This document shows positions 430-62,172 of a DNA stretch of 64,000 nucleotides, piece after piece; position 1 is the stretch's first letter, and each line of letters opens with the position of its first letter. Position numbers and translations under genes: made by a program. The notes under the pieces were generated by a model that had not been told where the DNA came from, made no database searches, and was given only the letters and a program-made list of their open reading frames with translations. Source of the stretch: Triatoma infestans (Eukaryota > Arthropoda > Insecta > Hemiptera > Reduviidae); assembly GCA_011037195.1 (NCBI GenBank), contig JAAEAF010003433.1, positions 46,166 through 110,165 on the forward strand, written 5' to 3'.

Positions 430-890
430 ACCAAAACGCCTCTTTTTTTTGGAAAATCAATAGCGATACGTTTTTACCTTTCCAGTGATCATTTCAAGAT
501 TATAGAAAATCTTTGCAGCCGTCTTCGAAAAAATACCAAAAAACTTCAAAACCTATTTTGTAAAGCAGCACTTCCGGTTAAGCGATTTTTTCGAATATTG
601 CTTCTTAAGTACAATAATATTATATACGTAACTGTAGTGGTACTTTAGAGGAAAGCATAATGCTAAATGTTCCCTGAGAACTCACGAAAAAATCAATTTT
701 TCAAATAAAAGTTTTAATATACGAAGTTTAAAGAAAAAGTGTTCGAGCCGTTTTTCAAGAAAATTGTGAAAAACTAAAATACCATTCAGTAAAGTCGCAC
801 TTCCAGTTAATGGTTTTTCCCCGAAATCTTCACAAGGTCAGATGCGGTGGTAGTGCTGAAGGGAACAATACCAAGTGTGAATTCCCTGTG
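430..890 (+). repeat. Family D dispersed repeat
   Basis: Contains the internal family D signatures: GCACTTCCGGTTAAGCGATT, a line of the type TACTTTAGAGGAAAGCATAA, and TTTCAAATAAAAGTTTTAAT. The copy seems to end near CAGATGCGGTGG, where a copy in the opposite orientation begins, giving a tail-to-tail arrangement. Confidence 0.65.
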
Positions 891-1760
891 ATTTAACTTT
901 CTCTAAAGTGCTGTTTCAGTTTACTACACAATTCTATCATCTAAATAATATCAATTTGAAATAAATATTTTTGTTGAAATTCCAAGTTTGAAGAAAATCG
1001 GATGACCGAGAGTGTGTTTTTACTGAAAATCATGTTTCAGTTTTTTGCTATTTTTTTTAAAACGGCTCCAAGTTTTCTTTAAAGTAAAAACGTGAACTAC
1101 ATATATAAACTTGACAAAATTTCAAAAATTATTAGTTAATAAAGGTGCTTTTATTAAATTTTAGTTACATATACCTAGTTTTTAGTTACTGCATCTTACT
1201 TACCATCAAGAATTCTTTAAATTTTTTGTTATCTATTTTTATATTTTATATTGTATATTGTAATTTTATATAGTGTATTATTTGTGTTTAATGTCCTCTA
1301 ATTACGTATTTTAATATTTTATTGGCTTTTGTATATCAATAATATGTACTTTTGTTTGTATGTTTAAGTATGTAATTGGGTTTTACCCGTTTAATAACTA
1401 AATAAATAAAGAGCTACAACTTTTATTTGAAATATTTCTCCTAGTTAAAGTCATTTAAGGGAGCTTCTGGGTGAGGAGGTTATGTTTTTCTCTAAACTGT
1501 TATCTTAGTTGATTATACAATTCTACCGACTAAACAAAATTAATTAGAAATAAATAAATTGCCAAAATTCCGAGTTTCAAGAAAATTAGTAAACTGGGAG
1601 TGCGTTTTTACTGAAGTTTTTTTTTCCAGTTTTTGCGATTTCCTCCATAAAAACCCCAGCGAATTTCATTAAATTTGGTATGCTGACTATAAAATTTGCC
1701 AGTTGCAATTATGTAAGCTGCAATAAGAGAAAGTTGTATGAGTGTTTCACACAGATTTTT
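890..1760 (-). repeat. Family D dispersed repeat, interrupted
   Basis: Reverse-oriented copy: AATTCCAAGTTTGAAGAAAA at about 980 and 1580, TCTAAAGTGCTGTTTCAGTT, and the terminal motif AGTGTTTCACACAGATTT ending near 1758. It is interrupted by an unrelated AT-rich segment (about 1140-1416) that looks like a LINE 3' end, and it is flanked downstream by a solo LTR. Confidence 0.65.
1140..1416 (+). mobile_element. Probable non-LTR retroposon 3' end
   Basis: Non-family-D sequence inserted within a family D copy and ending in ACTAAATAAATAAA, the type of A-rich tail found on LINE 3' UTRs. No coding part remains. The call rests on the interruption and the tail; target-site duplications could not be set by eye. 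Confidence 0.35.
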
Positions 1761-1776
1761 TTAACATTATTTATAT

Positions 1777-2580
1777 TGTAGTGGAATCAGATGTCTTGAA
1801 GAGGGTTATGATGCGATGAATGGTTGGGGGTTAGTTAGAGATTTTTAGAGAGTTGTTACTCGAAATATGAACTACTAATTTACGAAAATAGTCTATATTT
1901 TAACAATAATTTAAACGTTTGAAAAGATAAACTACAATTAATTTAAAATGATTTAAATGGTAACTAAGATGCATTACTATGATGAATAAATATATGTTTA
2001 AAACCTTAGATAGGGACGCGCTCGTGATGGATGAACTGATGTCGTAAATGACTGGTAGAATCCTGATGAAACGCTGATAAAATACTGAAGAATACTCATC
2101 CCCTCTTCCGGTGGAGAGACGTTTATATTGGCATCACTCACACATTGACAAGTGTGTAATTACGGGTCACACTAAAACATCTCTTGCCGTATGTTGACCC
2201 TAGGTCTTGAATAGGTCGGTGACCAGTGTGGCAACAGGTGATGAGTGTTTGTTGACCCTTGTATATCGGCCAGGTGGCTTCTTTGACCGTGTTTGATGAT
2301 GGCGGTTATCAAAAGACTGTAGCCAGGTGGACTTTTGAGTGTTTGTTGACCCTTGTATATCGGCCAGGTGGCTTCTGTATACTGACCGTATAATGACCCT
2401 TTTGAAAGGGTTCAGTTGAAAGGGTTTTAGTGTGTCTTTGGCGGTCCCTTTGACCGTGCACTGACCGCGGCTCTTGACCTGAATAATAGCGACTGGTTGG
2501 CACCACTAGTTATAATTTTTATAATTTAAAAATTATATCTTTTCCTTCTTGTTATCACTCCTACTTGTTATCACATTACA
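1777..2580 (+). mobile_element. Solo LTR, family L1
   Basis: An 804-bp solo LTR beginning TGTAGTGGAATC and ending CACATTACA, so it has TG...CA ends with the short inverted termini TGTA/TACA. It is flanked by a 4-bp direct repeat ATAT (1773-1776 and 2581-2584), as expected from an LTR-retrotransposon integrase, for example Ty3/gypsy. A second copy at 17813-18455 has the same ends and a different 4-bp duplication. A candidate TATA-like sequence occurs near 2130. No primer-binding site or internal region is next to it, so it is a solo LTR left by LTR-LTR recombination. Confidence 0.82.
2243..2376. repeat. Imperfect direct duplication inside solo LTR
   Basis: A 40-bp segment (GAGTGTTTGTTGACCCTTGT and on to GGCCAGGTGGCTTCT) occurs at 2243-2282 and again at 2337-2376, a 94-bp period. 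It accounts for part of the length difference from the other LTR copy. Tandem blocks in the U3 of an LTR often carry promoter or enhancer elements; that is an inference here. Confidence 0.75.
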
Positions 2581-2584
2581 ATAT

Positions 2585-3740
2585 ACATCATAGTGTTTAA
2601 TAATTTTAAAAGAAATAACAGTATTTTTTTAATTATTCATATTGCCATAATTATTGCAGGCCTTCAATTGTAAAAAATTCTTTTCATTAATATCAAAAGA
2701 AACCATGGAATAAAAACAATATTGAAGAAAAGCACATGGCTAACTAATCCCCAAAAAATTTATCTTTAAAAAGGCAGAAATCTTAATAAACTTAAATACT
2801 CTCATCAACATAAATATGATGGTTTCAACAAATTTACTCAATAAATAAGGAATTCCCCGAAAACAAACAAATAATAAATAAAAATGAATAATATTTTATT
2901 AAAGTTAATAAATTGTAACAATACGATGAGAATTATAATAATCAACAAAAGAGAATAATTAATATTAATATTAGCTTACATCAGGTTGGTAATATTATAG
3001 ATTTTACCTATTTTTTGGACAGTAATATTAAAAAACGAATGTAAAAAAAATTGTAAAAAATAAAATTAGGTAATCACAGTAAGTAATGTTACGTTTCAAC
3101 AAAAAATTTTTTTTAAATTGCAGAACTAAAATTATTAATTAAAATTGTTATCTTTTACAGAATAAACTATATTATAAAAAAATTACTCTTGAAACTAGCA
3201 TTAAAAACGCCGAAACGTTGAGTTCTTTGTAAAAATAAAAGAAGAAATTTGAAGGTTTTTAAGCTACATAATGTACTTGTTTTTTTATTATATAAATAAT
3301 GCAACTATAATTAGCCTATAAACCTATAAATAAATCATTTCATTCATCATAGTTTTATATATACAATTTTTTATATATAGCAAGTCTTCCGTAAGTTTCT
3401 GCGAAGGTTCCTTAGTGAACTAGCCTTTGACTATTGGTATTTCTCCCTCCAAGTATCTAATTTGCTGCGAATCCAGGACGTACAGAAATCAATTCCATAT
3501 GTAATACCTATTTTTTTTTTTTTTAGGCATTTTAACGTCTATCTAATAACTTAGGGGACAGCAATTGGGGTGGAAGTATTACTACCAATATAAATAAATT
3601 ATTCAATAAAACACTTTTCAGAGAGTGTCGAAGAAGTGTCCTTCCTTCCAATTTTAAGAGTAGGCTCACTAGTACTCTATCAAACCCTTCCCACAAAAAA
3701 ATTCTAAATTTGTTAAACAATTTCGGATTAAACAATAAAA
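2585..3740. other. Unassigned AT-rich sequence
   Basis: AT-rich, with no ORF I would support. A GCCGAAACGTTGAG segment near 3208 resembles the 3' half of the hammerhead-like motifs, but the upstream CUGANGA half is not preserved. Confidence 0.4.
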
Positions 3741-3966: not shown

Positions 3967-6720
3967 GCTATACTAGAGATATGGTAGCGCTGTACTAGAG
4001 AGGTAGCAGTATTATAGATGGGTAAGGTAGGCTTTCTACACCACATACTATACAGAGAGAGTAACTGAACCTGTGATTGATTGTGCCCAACTTCCTAGCA
4101 TCATTTGTTGGACGTTTCCAATTGAACACAATACTGCGGTCAGAGAGAGAGTGAGACAAACGTTAACTCTTGGCAATGAATGGTGGGCGTTTACATCGTA
4201 ACCAACCCTCCTACTGCCTGCTGGGGTAACCCAGGCCCGCTCGGACTGAAACCATCACCCTCGATGGTCCGCCAATCTAATCCATGAAGAACCTGTTGTT
4301 GTGTGATTGTATTAGTAGAGAGTAGTATCTCTTTGTAACAAAACTTATTATCTCGGCTTTTCCACGTGCAACATATTCCAAATTAGACATTCCAAAATGC
4401 CTTGGTCAGAATATTTAAATTTATTTCCGTACAAAAGAGATGGGTCATGGACAAGAGTTTTCCAAAGAAAAAGCTAGAGATATTATGTATTGCACAGTAA
4501 GCTTCACGTCAGCATGCAAGTTGATACCTCAAAAGATGGTAAAGATCGAATTTTCTTTCTTTTTTTTCCCCCCTGTGATGTTTTGTTCACACAAATCACA
4601 CACAATATATGTAGACCATTTGCTAAAATCTTTTTTCTTCATATTCAGGAAAACCTGGAAACATAATATTGAAAGATATTTATTGTCTAATCCCTCTCTC
4701 AGAAACTCCTCCTTAATCCCTAAAATATTTGATGGGAAAAATTTATATGTCAAAACTTTTCTGGATTCATTTATCTTCCTGAATTAAAATTTTATTTATT
4801 GCAGCATTCTTTGAAATTAGAGAGCGTTATTTATCTGTATTTTTAAACCCTATTTTGCATGTCAGAAGTCTATCAGATAATGGCTGTCCGAGATTGCCAC
4901 CCAATTTTGAAAAGATGTTTCGGATTGAAGAAAACACTTGCTACTCAAAATATAGCATGAGCAATGTGCTGAAAGGCCGTGGAAATCTTCTTGAAATGGT
5001 TAGTTTTTAAACAAGTCTTAATGTTTTAACACTTCTTCCTTAAGGCTTCTTAAAGTTTAACGACATCTTCTTTTCCTACCTTTCGTTAACTGCTTTGTTT
5101 ATAGACTTCCTTTTAAGACTCGTGTTTTGTATACTCTTTATTTTAGCGCACAAATTAAATTAGACTGCGAATTGGACTGGGTATTTATTCGAAAATCTGC
5201 ATCTTGCACTTGGGGGAATTTGAAGGAGCTTGTTGTTTAAAACAGATAGCCTTGTCCGAGCTTTGGCTTTGTGCTTAGTTATGCACTGTAAGCGGTGATA
5301 GTGTTGACGTTATCAGTGGCACTGTTGTGGTAATAATAAGAAGTTCCATCACAAGAAAGTATCCTTTCACTTGACATATTGCTATTGAACTCACTCTAAA
5401 TTAAGTATGAAGTATTCATTTTAATATGAGCTAAATATCAAATAGAACTAAACTTGCTCACTTATTATTTAAAGTAAAATAGGCTCTTAATGGATTCAGG
5501 CTAACATTTTTTTATATTAAAATCGCGACAGGAGAATTGATTTATTGGAATCTTCCCGAAGATAAAGTTAACCACTTTTTTTTTTTAACAATCTAAATGA
5601 AAATCTACATATACAACAAAAATCGATTAACTAAATCTAATTAAAAAAAAAAACAGACAGAAACGAATGGGGTGAGTGGATTGCAAAGTTTGTCTAAATA
5701 ATTGCATTTTAAATCATTGTATTGTGTATGTGTGTGCACACGGAAAAGGCGGAGTTTAATCAGTATACTGTCAGTAGACAATCAGTGTGCTACCCTGCGA
5801 ACTGATTTTCTCGTCTGTTATCTGATTGTTTTCAACTCTTTCGCTTTCCCCCATCAGTGTTTTAAAAAAAAATAGGGGTTCTAAAATATAAATAACAATA
5901 ATTTGTTTAATAAGTTTCAAGTTTTAATGTTTAGTTAAACTAAGTTTTGATTTATTGAATATTTAATAAATTAATGGAATGCAGATTATCTACCACTTAT
6001 TTCATAGTTGGTAGAACCATAAATCTTATCAAAATTATAAAAAAGTTACATTTTGCTTCCTCTTAATGATATTAGAGATGAAAGTATTGCTTCACATTGA
6101 TTTTCTTAATTGACGTTTCAACGAAAACACACCCTATGAGTGCCTCATTGCAGTCTAGAAAAATTTATATTTATCTTTGATTAAATATGTGTACATTTGT
6201 TTTCTTTGATTTATTTCTAAATATATAGAATCGTTTTCTTTGTTACAACGAAAAACAAGGAATTTTGATGGAAAAATTAATCTTTTATCAATCCCAGAGA
6301 CTGCGCTAGTATCATGCTTCTTATCTGTAATTTCAGGACAGTACTACTAATAACTAAATGTGTTACGTATCTGATACGCTTTAAGCGACTCCAGCGCTTT
6401 TAAGCACCACTTTAAATCCAGCCCCTTCGAGGATTTTTATATAAATTTGGCCTCGAATATAGAGTCAAAATCAGTCATTAAATAGTCTTCAAGAATTTTT
6501 AATTAGTTTACTGGTTTTTAACGGGACAACCTGGCTGTAAGTAATTATCAGATAATCTCAGCAGAAAGAAGTCTTAATACAGTTTACAAACTCCCCAGTC
6601 TACAATGTCAAGAAGTTATCTTCGATTAACATCTTTACTCTTTACTTGAATTCTTCTAACAGTGTAAACGTATGAATATAGTACATAGTTAAGCACTTGC
6701 TTATTGTAACATATTTTAGC
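3967..6720. other. Unassigned sequence, no supported gene
   Basis: AT-rich, low-complexity sequence with poly(T), poly(A) and GA runs. An open frame at 4440-4787 (115 codons) has no recognisable domain, and its middle is a translated T/C run, so I do not call it a gene. A GC-richer patch at 4200-4290 is unassigned. Confidence 0.5.
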
Positions 6721-23400: not shown

Positions 23401-23582
23401 TGTCAGAGACATTTTCCGTGGTAGCCTGCTTCATTTTGTGGTCATCGACCGGTTTCGGGCGTTCGCCCATCTTCAGGGTGCGTCTTTCAACAGTGTGACA
23501 ACACAGACTTGCACAGAGCAAATTTAGTTTATACACACTTTATATGTTCACATGTTTACCTCGGAAAATGTCTCTGATATAA
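23401..23582 (-). mobile_element. Short element with inverted ends and hammerhead-like core
   Basis: Ends are inverted copies: TCAGAGACATTTTCCG at 23403 and CGGAAAATGTCTCTGA ending near 23578. The element is about 180 bp, and a copy-specific core occupies 23436-23482. The same end and core recur in the fold-back at 30270-30906. No ORF is inside. A clear target-site duplication was not seen. Confidence 0.6.
23436..23482 (-). ncRNA. Hammerhead-ribozyme-like motif
   Basis: Minus strand: CTGAAGA (23476-23470), one extra T, stem II GGGCG-AA-CGCCC without a mismatch (23468-23457), GAAA (23456-23453), stem III ACC/GGU, then the triplet GUC at 23449-23447. Stem I is weak here: the 5' flank GCACC does not pair with GATGACC beyond the first base pair. 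It looks like a decayed version of the motif at 30305-30350. Confidence 0.5.
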
Positions 23583-25704: not shown

Positions 25705-26953
25705 CCTATTACAACTTCCCAAGAATGCACCTATATTCATAACCTATTTATATAATGCAGTTCTCGTACCACCTACTTTCCCATCCTCTGGAAATTCTCC
25801 ACAATAAAAATGATCCCCAAACCCAACAAACCTACTCATCGCCCCAACTCCTACAGATCTATCAGCCTTCTTCCTCTAATAGGAAAAATCCTAGAAAAAC
25901 TACTTCTAAAAAGAATCCAAGTAGAAATAATTCCTCAAATTATCATTCCTGACCATCAATTCGGCTTTCGGAGTTGCCATTCGACTATCCATCAGGCGCA
26001 TCGCGTAGTTGACGTTATCGCCTCCTCTCTCGAGCTTGGACGGTATTGTCCTGGAATATTCCTGGACATTTCCCAAGCTTTTGATCGGGTATGGCACCCG
26101 TGATTGCTGTATAAGATCAAGAGCATCCTACCGTTTACCTATTACCTCATCCTTAAGTCCTACCTTTCCGAACGTTATTTTCAACAGATACAAAATGTTA
26201 AACCTCTCCCAAAAAACCTCTTCCTCGTCTATTTATCCAGTGTTTACAGGCGTCCCACAAGGGAGCATACTTGCTCCTCTGCTTTACATTATTTATACGG
26301 CTGACCTACCCACTCATCCTAATACAGTTAACTTCACCTATGCCGATAATACAGCCATTCTCTCTCATTACTCAGATCCCGTCATAGCTGCCCGTAACTT
26401 ACAAAATCACCTCCAAATCCTCGATCCCTGGCTTCGTCAATGGAAAATCGGGGTAAATCAACGAAAATTCAAATACATAGTATTTACACTAAACCGCAAA
26501 ACGCTTCCTCCTATTACCTCAATAATATTCCTATTCCCATTACAAATCAAGTGAGATATCTCGGACTCCATCTGGACAAAAGACTCACATGGAACCCTCA
26601 TAACGATTACTCGACAAACGCTCTAAACTGATACTAGCGAATAAAAGACAACTATACAATTCGTTGCTGGACATATGGACATACGGACTGAATTGTACGG
26701 GACAGCATACCAACTCTCCAATCCATAATCCTTAGAACCATAGTAAATGTTTTACGTCTCCAACCACACGATCCACTCCGACCTAAATATTCCATTCGTC
26801 TCTGATTTAGCCCAATCCCGCTACAATAAATTCCATTCCAAACTATCCTCTCACTACAATCCAATAATCCTCTCACTATCCTCCAGAACAATCCCTACCA
26901 ATCCTCTTCGAAGACTCAGGCGGCAATGGCCCCGTGATCATTTAATTGCCTAA
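25705..26953 (+). pseudogene. Jockey-type reverse transcriptase pseudogene
   Basis: RT landmarks in order: MIPKPNKPTHRPNSYRSISL (25810-25869), DHQFGFRSCHSTIHQAHRVV (25951-26010), FLDISQAFDRVWHP (26060-26100), then a TGA, GVPQGSILAPLLYIIYTADL (about 26249-26308), and FTYADNTAIL (about 26334-26363), where the catalytic YADD has become YADN. It continues with VRYLGLHLDKRLTWNPH (about 26550-26600) and a typical Jockey tail, LRRLRRQWPRDHLIA, before a stop at about 26952. At least three frame switches (near 26190, 26505 and 26640) and an in-frame stop make it non-functional. Confidence 0.9.
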
Positions 26954-30268: not shown

Positions 30269-30304
30269 TATCAGAAATATTTTCCGTGACAGCCTGCTCA
30301 TTTT

Positions 30305-30350
30305 GTGGTCATCGACCGGTTTCGGGCGTTCGCCCATCATCAGGATGTCT
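30305..30350 (-). ncRNA. Hammerhead-ribozyme-like motif, left arm
   Basis: Minus strand: CATC (30347-30344), CTGATGA (30343-30337), one extra T (30336), stem II GGGCG-AA-CGCCC (30335-30324), GAAA (30323-30320), stem III ACC/GGU with no loop nucleotides (30320-30315), triplet GUC ending at 30314, then GATG (30313-30310), which pairs perfectly with CATC as a 4-bp stem I. Predicted cleavage is between 30314 and 30313. Stem III is palindromic (ACCGGT), so a dimeric form with a longer stem III is possible, as discussed for minimal natural hammerheads. Confidence 0.6.
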
Positions 30351-30823
30351 TGATAAAACAGTGCCTTTAACACAGACTTGCACAGAGCAAAATCAGTACA
30401 ATATACACTGTTTAGAAGTGTATCCATAAGACCTTTAAAAATGGAAACATCAATAAGTGGAGATATGCAACATAAATTACGTTTTGAAAGAAATTTGCAT
30501 TATTAATTATTCCACTGTAGTCAACAACTGGCGTAGTGGTCTGTCTTGATATTACTCCTATACTCAAAGAACAGCACTTAAAAATAACTTAGAATTAGTA
30601 ATGAAAATTTCCTCCGAAACGTAATTTAAGTTTAAGCCTGTTGATGCTTTCCATTTTTAAAAGAACGATGAATAGAATTGCCTTTTAAAAATGAAAACAC
30701 CATTTGGCCTTAGTCAGGTATAGAGAACCCCGTCTTAACCTAGTTGGACATTAACAAAACACCTCCAAACTATATATAAACGATTTCGCTCTGTGCAAGT
30801 CTATATTATCGCACTGTTTTAAC

Positions 30824-30868
30824 TAAACATCCTGATGACAGGCGAACGCCCGAAACCGATCGATGATC
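30824..30868 (+). ncRNA. Hammerhead-ribozyme-like motif, right arm
   Basis: Plus strand: CATC (30828-30831), CTGATGA (30832-30838), one extra C, stem II AGGCG-AA-CGCCC (30840-30851, with an A-C mismatch at the base), GAAA (30852-30855), stem III ACC/GAU with one mismatch, triplet AUC ending at 30861, then GATG (30862-30865) pairing with CATC. Core and stem I match the left arm; stems II and III each carry one mutation. Confidence 0.55.
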
Positions 30869-30911
30869 ACAAAGTGAAGCAGGTTATCTCGGAAAATATC
30901 TCTGATGCTTT

Positions 30912-31190
30912 CTAACCTGCGCACCCAACCATAACAAATAATTATATATATGTATATATTCTTGTTATTTTCTTCAAATGAATTTAAATACTATTTTAAC
31001 AGAATAAACGGTACTAACTCAACCTCGGGCAAAAAAAAAGGGGGGTGTTCCAGTTTGTATCGAGTCTAATTGGGAAACTCTAAAATAAATGGTTATTGAA
31101 GCAAAGGTTCGCTGCACATTTGCCTGCCATTGAAAAATCTATAATTTCTTAGTCTTCCGCAGCCATTCACATGTAAAACATACAGATTTT
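30912..31190. other. Unassigned sequence
   Basis: No feature recognised apart from an A-run/G-run at 31030-31046. Confidence 0.4.
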
Positions 31191-31192
31191 CG

Positions 31193-31403
31193 GATTGAGG
31201 TCGCGTCAGTATAGTCTGATATAACCAAACGGATCGGTTATATTGCAATAGGCTTCTTCAGTGTAGTTCACCTTGAATGCCAAAGCAACACTGGCAAAAA
31301 ATAGGGTGGGCAGAACAGGGTTGCTTTGGCATTCAAGGCTGAATTACCTTGAAGAACCTATAGCAATATCGGTGAAATGTCTACGACTGATGTGGTCTCA
31401 ACC
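31193..31403. mobile_element. Fold-back element with ~90-bp arms
   Basis: A strong inverted repeat: CACCTTGAATGCCAAAGCAA (31269-31288) is inverted as TTGCTTTGGCATTCAAGG (31321-31338). Pairing continues outward through GCAATAGG/CCTATAGC and ATTGAGGTC/GGTCTCAA to about 31194 and 31402. The right arm holds CTTGAAGA, a hairpin, then GAAATGTC, and the left arm its inverse ACTGAAGAAG; these look like degraded hammerhead cores. The loop is about 30 bp. Confidence 0.65.
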
Positions 31404-60962: not shown

Positions 60963-62172
60963 GTTGGGGGGGGGGGGGATAGGGCTCCCATTGATATCTA
61001 GCATAGTTTTGGCTATTTTGCCACCTTTGGTCTTTCCTGTAATGTTTTATCGATGTTTATGTTTACTTTGACCCGTCTTAGTAAACCTTAGTACTTGACA
61101 GTGTTTCAGTTTAGTTTTCTGATGCTGAAGGGAAACATCATGAATATTGAAGGGATAACATCATGATTTAGCTGCTGAAGTAGATACGAAGGAAAAAGCG
61201 GTTTTGTTTTTTCAATCTGAGGGAGTATTGCACAGTGAAGGAATGTGTTGTAGTGGCCATCAAATGAAACTTTATCTAGGCAAAAACGGTAGATAAAGGA
61301 GATGCAATGTGAGAGGATGCAAACAAACCTTTGGATTGAGAAAAGGTACATTTTTGGAAAACAGGTATATATTGCCAACAACAGTCATAATTTGCCAGTT
61401 AATAAATTTGCTATATTGCTGGACAAAAGAATATTCATCTACTAAAGGTCAAGAGAAACTAGGATTAGCAACCGATGCTATTACAGATTGGAAAAACATG
61501 TTTCGAGAAGTTTGCGCAGATCATTTATTAAAAAATTTCAGAAAGATCGGAGGGCCAGGGAAAACAGATGAGGTAGGCGAATTGAGTTTTACTCGACGCA
61601 AAAATCACATTGGTAGAATTTATCCTAATCAATGGGTCTTCCGAGGTATTTGTCGAGAAGATAACCAATGCTTCATACATTGCGTGCCAGACCGTACATC
61701 GGAAACACTACTGAAAACAATATCAGAATGAATTCACCCCGGTACAACCATTATATCTGACATGTGGCTAACCTATACCGGCATTATTAACATACCAGGA
61801 ATGAATTACCAGCATTATACTGTGAATCATTCAAAAAATTACGTAGATCCCACCACAGGTAGTCATACAGAACGAATTGAGTCGTTATGGGCACAAGCAA
61901 AGGCAAGAAACAAAAAAGAACATGGTACAAGAAGAAGCGTAATAGACTCATATTTGTGTGAATTTTTATGGCGCCACAGAAATAGCGGTAATGAATCGTT
62001 CAATCAATTAATAAATGACGTAAATTTTTGGCCACCAGAATAAATACGTTCAAACATTAAAACAACTTTTACTAAACAGTTTCCCCAAACCTTTCTTTTA
62101 CAGATAATAGACTAGAGAAATGATTAAGATCAATGCTAGATATCAGTGGGATCCCTATTCCTAAAAAGACCC
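60963..62172 (+). mobile_element. Merlin DNA transposon, nearly complete
   Basis: A 1.21-kb element flanked by the 8-bp direct repeat AATTTATT (60955-60962 and 62173-62180), the target length known for Merlin. The ends are inverted repeats: ATAGGGCTCCCATTGATATC then TAGCAT on the left (60979-61004) and, inverted, ATAGGGATCCCACTGATATC then TAGCAT on the right (62133-62158), differing at two positions. The outermost left part has expanded to a run of about 15 G. One transposase-coding region fills the interior in the same orientation. With only two nonsense codons found it is one of the youngest DNA transposons here. Confidence 0.85.
61159..62043 (+). pseudogene. Merlin transposase (ISXO2/IS1016-like DDE), two stops
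   Basis: One frame runs from 61159 to the TAA at 62041-62043, broken by TAA at 61294-61296 and TGA at 61729-61731. The N-terminal part has a zinc-ribbon-like pattern (GMCCSGHQMKL, then RCNVRGCKQTF). The catalytic part has KTDEVGE (first D at 61567-61569), TIISDMW (second D at 61759-61761) and GSHTERIESLW (E at 61879-61881), with QWVFRGICR and HYTVNHSKNYVDPTTGSHTE between them. These are hallmarks of the ISXO2-like/Merlin transposase family. About 295 residues in total, close to family length. No intact start ATG was assigned, since a TAA lies just upstream in frame. Confidence 0.88.

What the first reader, a model, noticed from the sequence alone, without database searches (positions are those of the whole stretch)
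30270..30910. Fold-back element with one hammerhead-like motif in each arm
Arms about 240-300 bp long are inverted, and each has a core with a perfect 4-bp stem I (CATC/GATG). Penelope-like elements are known for hammerheads in their LTRs and for LTRs in inverted arrangement, yet no RT lies between the arms. It may be a non-autonomous derivative or a retrozyme-like fold-back family not yet described.
Basis: partly seen in the sequence, partly recalled or inferred. Interest (0 to 1): 0.8.

Follow-up and report, generated by a model that had tools for sequence, protein, structure and literature searches.

The report
Inverted ends of a Penelope retrotransposon
The fold-back sequence is a short insertion made of two end-pieces of a Penelope-type jumping gene, each carrying a small self-cutting RNA motif, and its sister copies appear to record how such elements copy themselves into both strands of a cut chromosome.

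Summary
Window 30270-30936 holds two inverted (head-to-head) copies of a hammerhead-bearing repeat. It is not an undescribed fold-back family but the terminal repeat (pLTR) of an endonuclease-bearing Penelope-like element. The genome has 4,193 close matches to a 79-nt stretch of it. A related copy encodes an 841-aa frame that begins inside the hammerhead, and GIY-YIG-like sequence lies beside 10 of 29 copies. The arrangement recurs. Of 38 independent young loci, 25 have their focal arm in a head-to-head pair; these loci hold 27 pairs. Flanking duplications score above the 95th percentile of mispaired flanks in 19 of 27, and centre junctions differ between pairs. In all 27, one arm carries a 32-nt 'tail' and the other lacks it, as in the window. 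Of 52 arms not extending further, 22 stop at one start-like site. Inverted pLTRs, the tail and two internal RT start sites are already published (PMC3846280, PMC11167929). The mixed-tail rule fits reverse transcription primed from both cut strands, each at a different start site. Two counter-cases exist. Ordinary in kind; mechanistically informative.

The parts
30270..30509 (-). Left arm: partial pLTR copy, tailless end at 30270 (reads ...GGAAAATATTTCTGAT on the - strand), inner end about 30509, lacking ~88 nt present in other copies
30310..30347 (-). Hammerhead motif of the left arm, CATC-CTGATGA-TGGGCGAACGCCC-GAAACCGGTC^GATG, identical to the form used as pattern
30493..30936 (+). Right arm: longer pLTR copy ending with the tail
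30828..30865 (+). Hammerhead motif of the right arm; stem II has 3 of 4 pairs, the stem III palindrome ACCGGT is changed to ACCGAT
30907..30936 (+). Tail (optional extension after CTGAT; about 32 nt in other copies, AC-rich end, here CCATAACA), present only on this arm
   Evidence: named by analogy with PMC3846280 and PMC11167929
30262..30271 (.). Candidate left target-site duplication TTATATATAT (AT-rich, weak)
   Evidence: score 8.95; 2 of 300 shuffles reach it
30942..30951 (.). Candidate right target-site duplication TTATATATAT
23403..23578 (.). A second head-to-head pair of the same family: left arm 23403-23536 (-) with hammerhead, right stub 23562-23578 (+); both ends tailless

Best explanation
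It is a small insertion consisting of two head-to-head copies of the pLTR (5'-leader region) of a Penelope/Poseidon-type PLE. SHOWN: copy number, head-to-head recurrence, flanking duplications around most sampled pairs, one tailed and one tailless arm, a peak of arms stopping at a common upstream site, and association of the unit with PLE RT-EN coding sequence. INFERRED: the PLE protein cuts both strands of an AT-rich target a little apart. Each 3' end primes reverse transcription at one of two internal start sites just inside the ORF of PLE RNA (tailless site or tail end, 32 nt apart). Each cDNA runs back through the hammerhead toward the RNA 5' end. The two cDNAs are then joined, leaving an inverted pair with no RT between. 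In the window both arms run past the presumed start site (about 277 and 103 nt by my count), so there the template was probably a tandem or read-through RNA. The hammerheads travel as part of the leader; nothing here shows that they act in insertion.
For:: 4,193 matches to a 79-nt stretch with up to 3 mismatches, control 0. GIY-YIG-like sequence beside 10 of 29 loci (the 84-aa query is from one of them, L023). L112 has an inverted pLTR, a direct pLTR, an 841-aa frame and a further direct pLTR; 378 homologues; the 120 listed are 30-51% identical over 57-96% of the query, most with precomputed RVT_1 and 8 with GIY-YIG; 40 of the 66 matches fetched, 38 independent; 25 pairs by script plus 2 with tail-only left arms found by eye; 27 of 27 one tailed/one tailless (script alone: 24 of 25; L095b was reclassified on reading, its tail has an internal deletion and its flanks an 11-bp duplication). 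Flank scores above the 95th percentile of 338 mispaired flanks in 19 of 27. Seven further pairs read by eye, the window included, are also mixed; these were noticed, not sampled; 67 arms, 15 scored as extending upstream; of the other 52, 22 start at probe position 1-3; own partner in the top 5 of 25 for 16 of 25 pairs. PMC11167929 (section 3 part 1 and passages): in vitro the Anolis PLE cuts and extends both strands and starts RT at two adjacent internal sites that explain the tail.
Against: Two counter-cases to the tail rule: L112 is tailed at both ends with no duplication seen by eye, and window 23403-23578 is tailless at both ends, with a 27-nt AT-rich filler between its left arm and the duplication. 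L055 cannot be classed, since its left arm stops short of both ends. 8 of 27 pairs score no clear duplication by script. The window's own duplication is weak. PMC11167929 reports no difference of RT start site between strands in vitro. Arms more alike within a pair than between pairs also fit copying of one arm from the other. The sample was chosen by near-identity to one 79-mer, and each stretch shows 800 bp upstream but only 100 bp downstream, so facing-inward partners of the focal arm could not be seen. Among 29 older loci with 1.5 kb on both sides in nearly all, only 5 are clear head-to-head pairs, so the form is not dominant there. No RNA data.
Confidence: 0.7

Rival explanations
1. Internally deleted remnant: a full element with inverted pLTRs inserted, then lost its RT-EN body.
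For: PMC3846280 (passages) describes a Penelope copy with inverted pLTRs and an internal microhomology deletion. L112 shows inverted pLTR - direct pLTR - ORF - direct pLTR. Both window arms run past the presumed RNA start.
Against: In the 38-locus sample 22 of 52 non-extended arms stop at the same start-like site; later deletions would not choose it. The one long copy seen, L112, is tailed/tailed, unlike the 27 short pairs.
Confidence: 0.15
2. Self-priming (snap-back): one cDNA folds back and copies itself into the second arm, as proposed in PMC3846280.
For: Within-pair arms are more alike than between-pair arms (median 0.917 against 0.891); several pairs are near-continuous palindromes.
Against: A copied arm should carry the same end as its template; 27 of 27 sampled pairs differ in tail.
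Confidence: 0.1
3. A self-propagating non-autonomous fold-back or retrozyme-like family with its own RNA circles.
For: Short pairs are the commonest form among the sampled young copies (25 of 38); stem I and the cut-site U are mostly kept in left arms not chosen for identity (18 of 22 and 21 of 22).
Against: Centre junctions differ between pairs. No head-to-tail arrays in the loci examined. The hammerhead core is intact in only 12 of 22 such left arms. The tail is PLE coding sequence.
Confidence: 0.04
4. Chance neighbours: two independent pLTR insertions.
For: The family is abundant; unrelated neighbours occur (the two pLTR copies of L068; facing-inward neighbours in L095, L101, L108).
Against: Flanking duplications enclose the whole pair (L069 nested in another EN sequence, L067, L084, L075 and others). 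Head-to-head neighbours outnumber same-strand ones 26 to 2 in the 38 loci, where both upstream kinds were visible.
Confidence: 0.01

Closest known systems
Penelope elements of Adineta vaga (Pen2a_Av and kin; PMC3846280, passages and Discussion read)
   Same: pLTRs direct and inverted, head-to-head most frequent; TSDs of 8-10 bp; optional 31-bp tail on one inverted pLTR; pLTR includes the first codons of the ORF; internally deleted inverted copies and solo pLTRs
   Different: That text does not mention hammerheads (0 occurrences). Its copy number is called strikingly low, whereas here the family has thousands of copies and RT-less pairs make up most of the sampled young ones
PAc, Poseidon-type PLE of Anolis carolinensis (PMC11167929, section 3 part 1 and passages read)
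   Same: Hammerhead overlapping the ORF start; two internal RT start sites that define the tail, in an AC-rich stretch; cutting and extension of both strands; AT-rich targets
   Different: There no start-site difference between strands was seen in vitro; here the two arms nearly always use different sites
Metazoan retrozymes (PMC7229834, passages read)
   Same: Type I hammerheads in short AT-rich repeats
   Different: Retrozymes are tandem and form circular RNAs; here units are single or head-to-head, with a minimal PLE-type hammerhead

Membership tests
Penelope-like element, EN+ (Penelope/Poseidon type) | RT followed by a C-terminal GIY-YIG endonuclease in one ORF | tested here: met
   841-aa frame in L112 with YVDD and GVYELKCPDC..IYVGQTGRKIKERF read by eye; 378 homologues, most of the 120 listed with precomputed RVT_1 and 8 with GIY-YIG. 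Against: Pfam gave no match at E<=0.01; NCBIfam gave one RT model (Drt3a) at 48.8 bits, below its cut-off of 200. Not testable on the window copy, which has no ORF left
Penelope-like element, EN+ (Penelope/Poseidon type) | pLTRs in direct and/or inverted arrangement | tested here: met
   L112; 27 head-to-head pairs
Penelope-like element, EN+ (Penelope/Poseidon type) | Optional 30-40 nt tail at the pLTR end, within the ORF start | tested here: met
   32-nt tail reading on in frame into the ORF of L112
Penelope-like element, EN+ (Penelope/Poseidon type) | Hammerhead motif in the pLTR overlapping the ORF start (seen in some PLEs) | tested here: met
   Motif in both window arms; frame KMGERPKPVDDHK starts inside it in L112. 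Cleavage itself not testable here
Penelope-like element, EN+ (Penelope/Poseidon type) | Target-site duplication | tested here: met
   19 of 27 sampled pairs above the null's 95th percentile; for the window copy itself only weak
Retrozyme (metazoan, non-LTR) | Tandem head-to-tail units with hammerheads | tested here: not met
   Neighbouring arms in 38 loci: 26 head-to-head, 3 facing inward, 2 same-strand (L080; L089, a fragment of one arm); in 29 older loci 6, 2 and 5. No array
Retrozyme (metazoan, non-LTR) | Circular RNA | not testable with these tools
   No RNA data
Fold-back / TIR DNA transposon | Same end sequence on both arms and one shared internal structure | tested here: not met
   Ends differ (tail) and centres differ between copies

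The most novel reading that the evidence does not exclude
In living cells this PLE inserts mainly by a coupled two-strand, two-start-site reaction: the two strand ends must use different RT start sites on leader RNA, so short capped-leader cDNAs are laid down head to head. The mini-insertions are then a genome-wide record that maps the RNA start, both RT start sites and the staggered cut, and shows that hammerhead-cleaved RNA is rarely the template.
Probability: 0.4. Interest if true: 0.65.

Novelty: new member of a known kind. Interest (0 to 1): 0.42.

Why it matters
How PLEs come to have inverted terminal repeats is left open in PMC3846280 (self-priming suggested, not settled), and the in-vitro work of 2024 covers one protein. 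A genome with thousands of copies gives a statistical footprint: 27 of 27 sampled pairs carry one tailed and one tailless arm, 19 of them with clear flanking duplications, and 22 of 52 non-extended arms stop at one start-like site. That argues for priming from both target strands at different start sites and makes the question testable on any PLE-rich genome. Only 1 of those 52 arms ends near the hammerhead cut (L082, +94; cut after +92), which fits the in-vitro finding that uncleaved RNA is the usual template.

Tried and rejected
Rfam at gathering and at E<=10: no hammerhead hit. Single-strand folding of the arms: z-scores between -0.09 and -1.67, not informative. The Jockey-like LINE beside L033/L034 was first considered as a carrier; the two loci are near-identical duplicates and the shared LINE sequence ends before the pair. 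The repeat at the far end of L068 was first read as the 5' end of a 5-kb element; on reading its translation I saw no PLE sequence between. L066, L070 and L071 show the unit inverted relative to EN sequence; read as 5'-inverted insertions, not pursued. Structure prediction was not run because sequence already placed the protein; no PDB chain matched by sequence. PMC12910113 (passages) gave nothing on inverted pLTRs. Naming the organism failed: the COX1 search did not complete.

Full report
CHECK. The arms and both hammerhead-like motifs are present. The left arm carries CATCCTGATGATGGGCGAACGCCCGAAACCGGTCGATG on the - strand (30310-30347). The right arm carries the same with changes in stems II and III on the + strand (30828-30865). 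100 shuffles of the window gave no match to the pattern.

IDENTITY. A search of the window's own 941-Mb assembly found a large dispersed family (126 matches; 40 of 7,918 first-look candidates were scored). An alignment of 29 sequences (28 copies plus the window) showed a unit with ragged 5' ends and two alternative 3' ends. One is ...GGAAAATATCTCTGAT (tailless). The other adds GCTTTCCAGCTCTGCGGACCCAACCACAACAA (tailed). GIY-YIG-like sequence lies beside the unit in 10 of the 29 loci L002-L030. An EN-directed search led to L112, which has an inverted pLTR (151-389), a direct 3'UTR+pLTR (392-867), an 841-aa frame (713-3238) and a direct pLTR ending near 4070. The frame reads KMGERPKPVDDHKMKQATTENVSDAFQLCGTNHHN, so the ORF starts inside the hammerhead and the tail is its continuation. 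The protein has 378 homologues, of which 120 were listed, 30-51% identical; the five with organism names are insects. Pfam gave no match to it and NCBIfam only a sub-threshold RT model. The unit is therefore the pLTR of an EN-bearing Penelope-like element.

RECURRENCE. The 79-nt stretch from CATC to CTGAT has 2,166 + 2,027 matches with up to 3 mismatches; the reversed control has none. With up to 1 mismatch there are 66. I took the first 40 of these 66 in list order, 979 bp each: 800 bp upstream and 100 bp downstream of the match. Two pairs of loci are duplicates (L087/L090, L086/L104), leaving 38. Pairs: 25 by script, plus L074 and L075, whose left arms are only the tail. The focal copy belongs to a head-to-head pair in 25 of 38 loci; L080 and L095 hold one further pair each. 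L110 was dropped because its second fragment is cut by the locus edge some 670 bp away. Pairs are head-to-head by definition of the count. Other neighbours in these loci were 3 facing inward (L095, L101, L108) and 2 same-strand (L080; L089, a fragment), and inward partners downstream of the focal arm could not be seen. In the 29 older loci, with 1.5 kb on both sides in nearly all, neighbours were 6 head-to-head within 1 kb, 2 facing inward and 5 same-strand; 5 of the 6 are clear pairs (the window, L010, L018, L021, L026), all mixed in tail.

TAIL RULE. The script classed 24 of 25 pairs as one tailed/one tailless. In L076 the tailless arm aligned 12 nt into the tail by chance, because its 11-bp flanking duplication TGTTGCCAGTT resembles the tail. 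The remaining one (L095b) has a tail with an internal deletion (GTTGTTGTGG-CTGGAAAGC) and an 11-bp duplication ATTGAGGCATA, and was reclassified by eye. With the two tail-only pairs the count is 27 of 27. Seven other pairs read by eye agree: the window, L010, L018, L021, L033/L034, L067 and L069 (the last is the L026 pair). Against: L112 (tailed/tailed, no duplication seen), window 23403-23578 (tailless/tailless, with a filler beside the duplication), and L055 (unclassifiable).

SINGLE EVENTS. Flank scores exceed the 95th percentile of 338 mispaired flanks in 19 of 27 pairs (10-17 bp as scored; the L107 case is mostly T and weak), with 12 above the null's maximum. Examples are TTCATGGAAAGTCGTT (L075), CCATCAATAGACTA (L084) and ACATTGCAGGGGT (L099). 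L069's pair is nested in another element's EN sequence between ATCAGTTTTATAGT and ATCAGTTTTATGGT. Nineteen duplications typed from that list (L095b in place of L107, L080 shortened) are 73% A+T. The window's own duplication is short and AT-rich. Centre junctions differ from pair to pair.

INNER ENDS. Of 67 arms, 15 were scored as extending upstream. Of the other 52, 22 begin at probe positions 1-3, AGTGTATC. Of the 16 that begin exactly at position 1, 10 have a G just before it (L077 and L092 among the 16 are misaligned; in L074, L075 and L081 the G may belong to the other arm). The clearly longer copies read GTC or CC there. I take this site for the RNA start (an initiator-like TCAGT, recalled) and the extra G for a possible cap trace; both are inference. 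Only L082 ends near the hammerhead cut.

MECHANISM. PMC11167929 (section 3 part 1 and passages) shows for an Anolis PLE that both strands are cut and extended and that RT starts at two adjacent internal sites which account for the tail. The pairs here are what that reaction would leave if each strand end used a different site and the cDNAs were joined. Self-priming, proposed in PMC3846280 (passages and Discussion), does not predict different ends. Within-pair arms are somewhat more alike than between-pair arms (median 0.917 against 0.891; the own partner is in the top 5 of 25 for 16 of 25 pairs), so both arms probably come from the same or sister RNAs.

NOVELTY. The kind is known. In searches (listings, and passages of the papers named here) I found no statement that mixed tail ends are the rule in inverted pairs; PMC3846280 says the tail is optionally present on one of them. 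The 2014 PLE-hammerhead paper (PMC4209133) is not held, and the classical Penelope papers were not looked up, so earlier notice is possible.

HOST. Not identified. The COX1 search did not complete. Insect and scorpion names among protein hits and a Jockey-like RT (label recalled) suggest an arthropod, but this is a guess.

CHANGES AFTER RE-CHECKING. The orientation count was re-done with both-sided loci and the design limit stated; identity and coverage ranges, duplication lengths and the reading of the extra G were corrected.

Noticed in passing
window 31240-31369: A long near-perfect hairpin (54-nt arms, about 22-nt loop; MFE -69.5, z -10.84, none of 200 shuffles as stable). Pre-miRNA-like or a small MITE; no Rfam gathering hit. 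The genome search for copies did not complete.
   Followed up: partly
window 23403-23578: A second pair of the same PLE family, with both ends tailless and a 27-nt AT-rich filler between the left arm and the target duplication ATAAGATTC (read by eye).
   Followed up: partly
window 26009-26554: Fragment of a LINE-type reverse transcriptase (RVT_1, E 2.9e-11), Jockey-like by recall.
   Followed up: no
window 61297-61731: 144-aa open frame that resembles ISXO2-like (Merlin) transposases by recall; no Pfam match at E<=0.01.
   Followed up: no
L066, L070, L071: PLE copies in which EN sequence is inverted relative to the 3' unit, like 5' inversions by twin priming.
   Followed up: partly
copies listed: Many of the listed copies read AAAAAG in place of AAAATG inside the leader, a likely subfamily marker of this PLE.
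   Followed up: no
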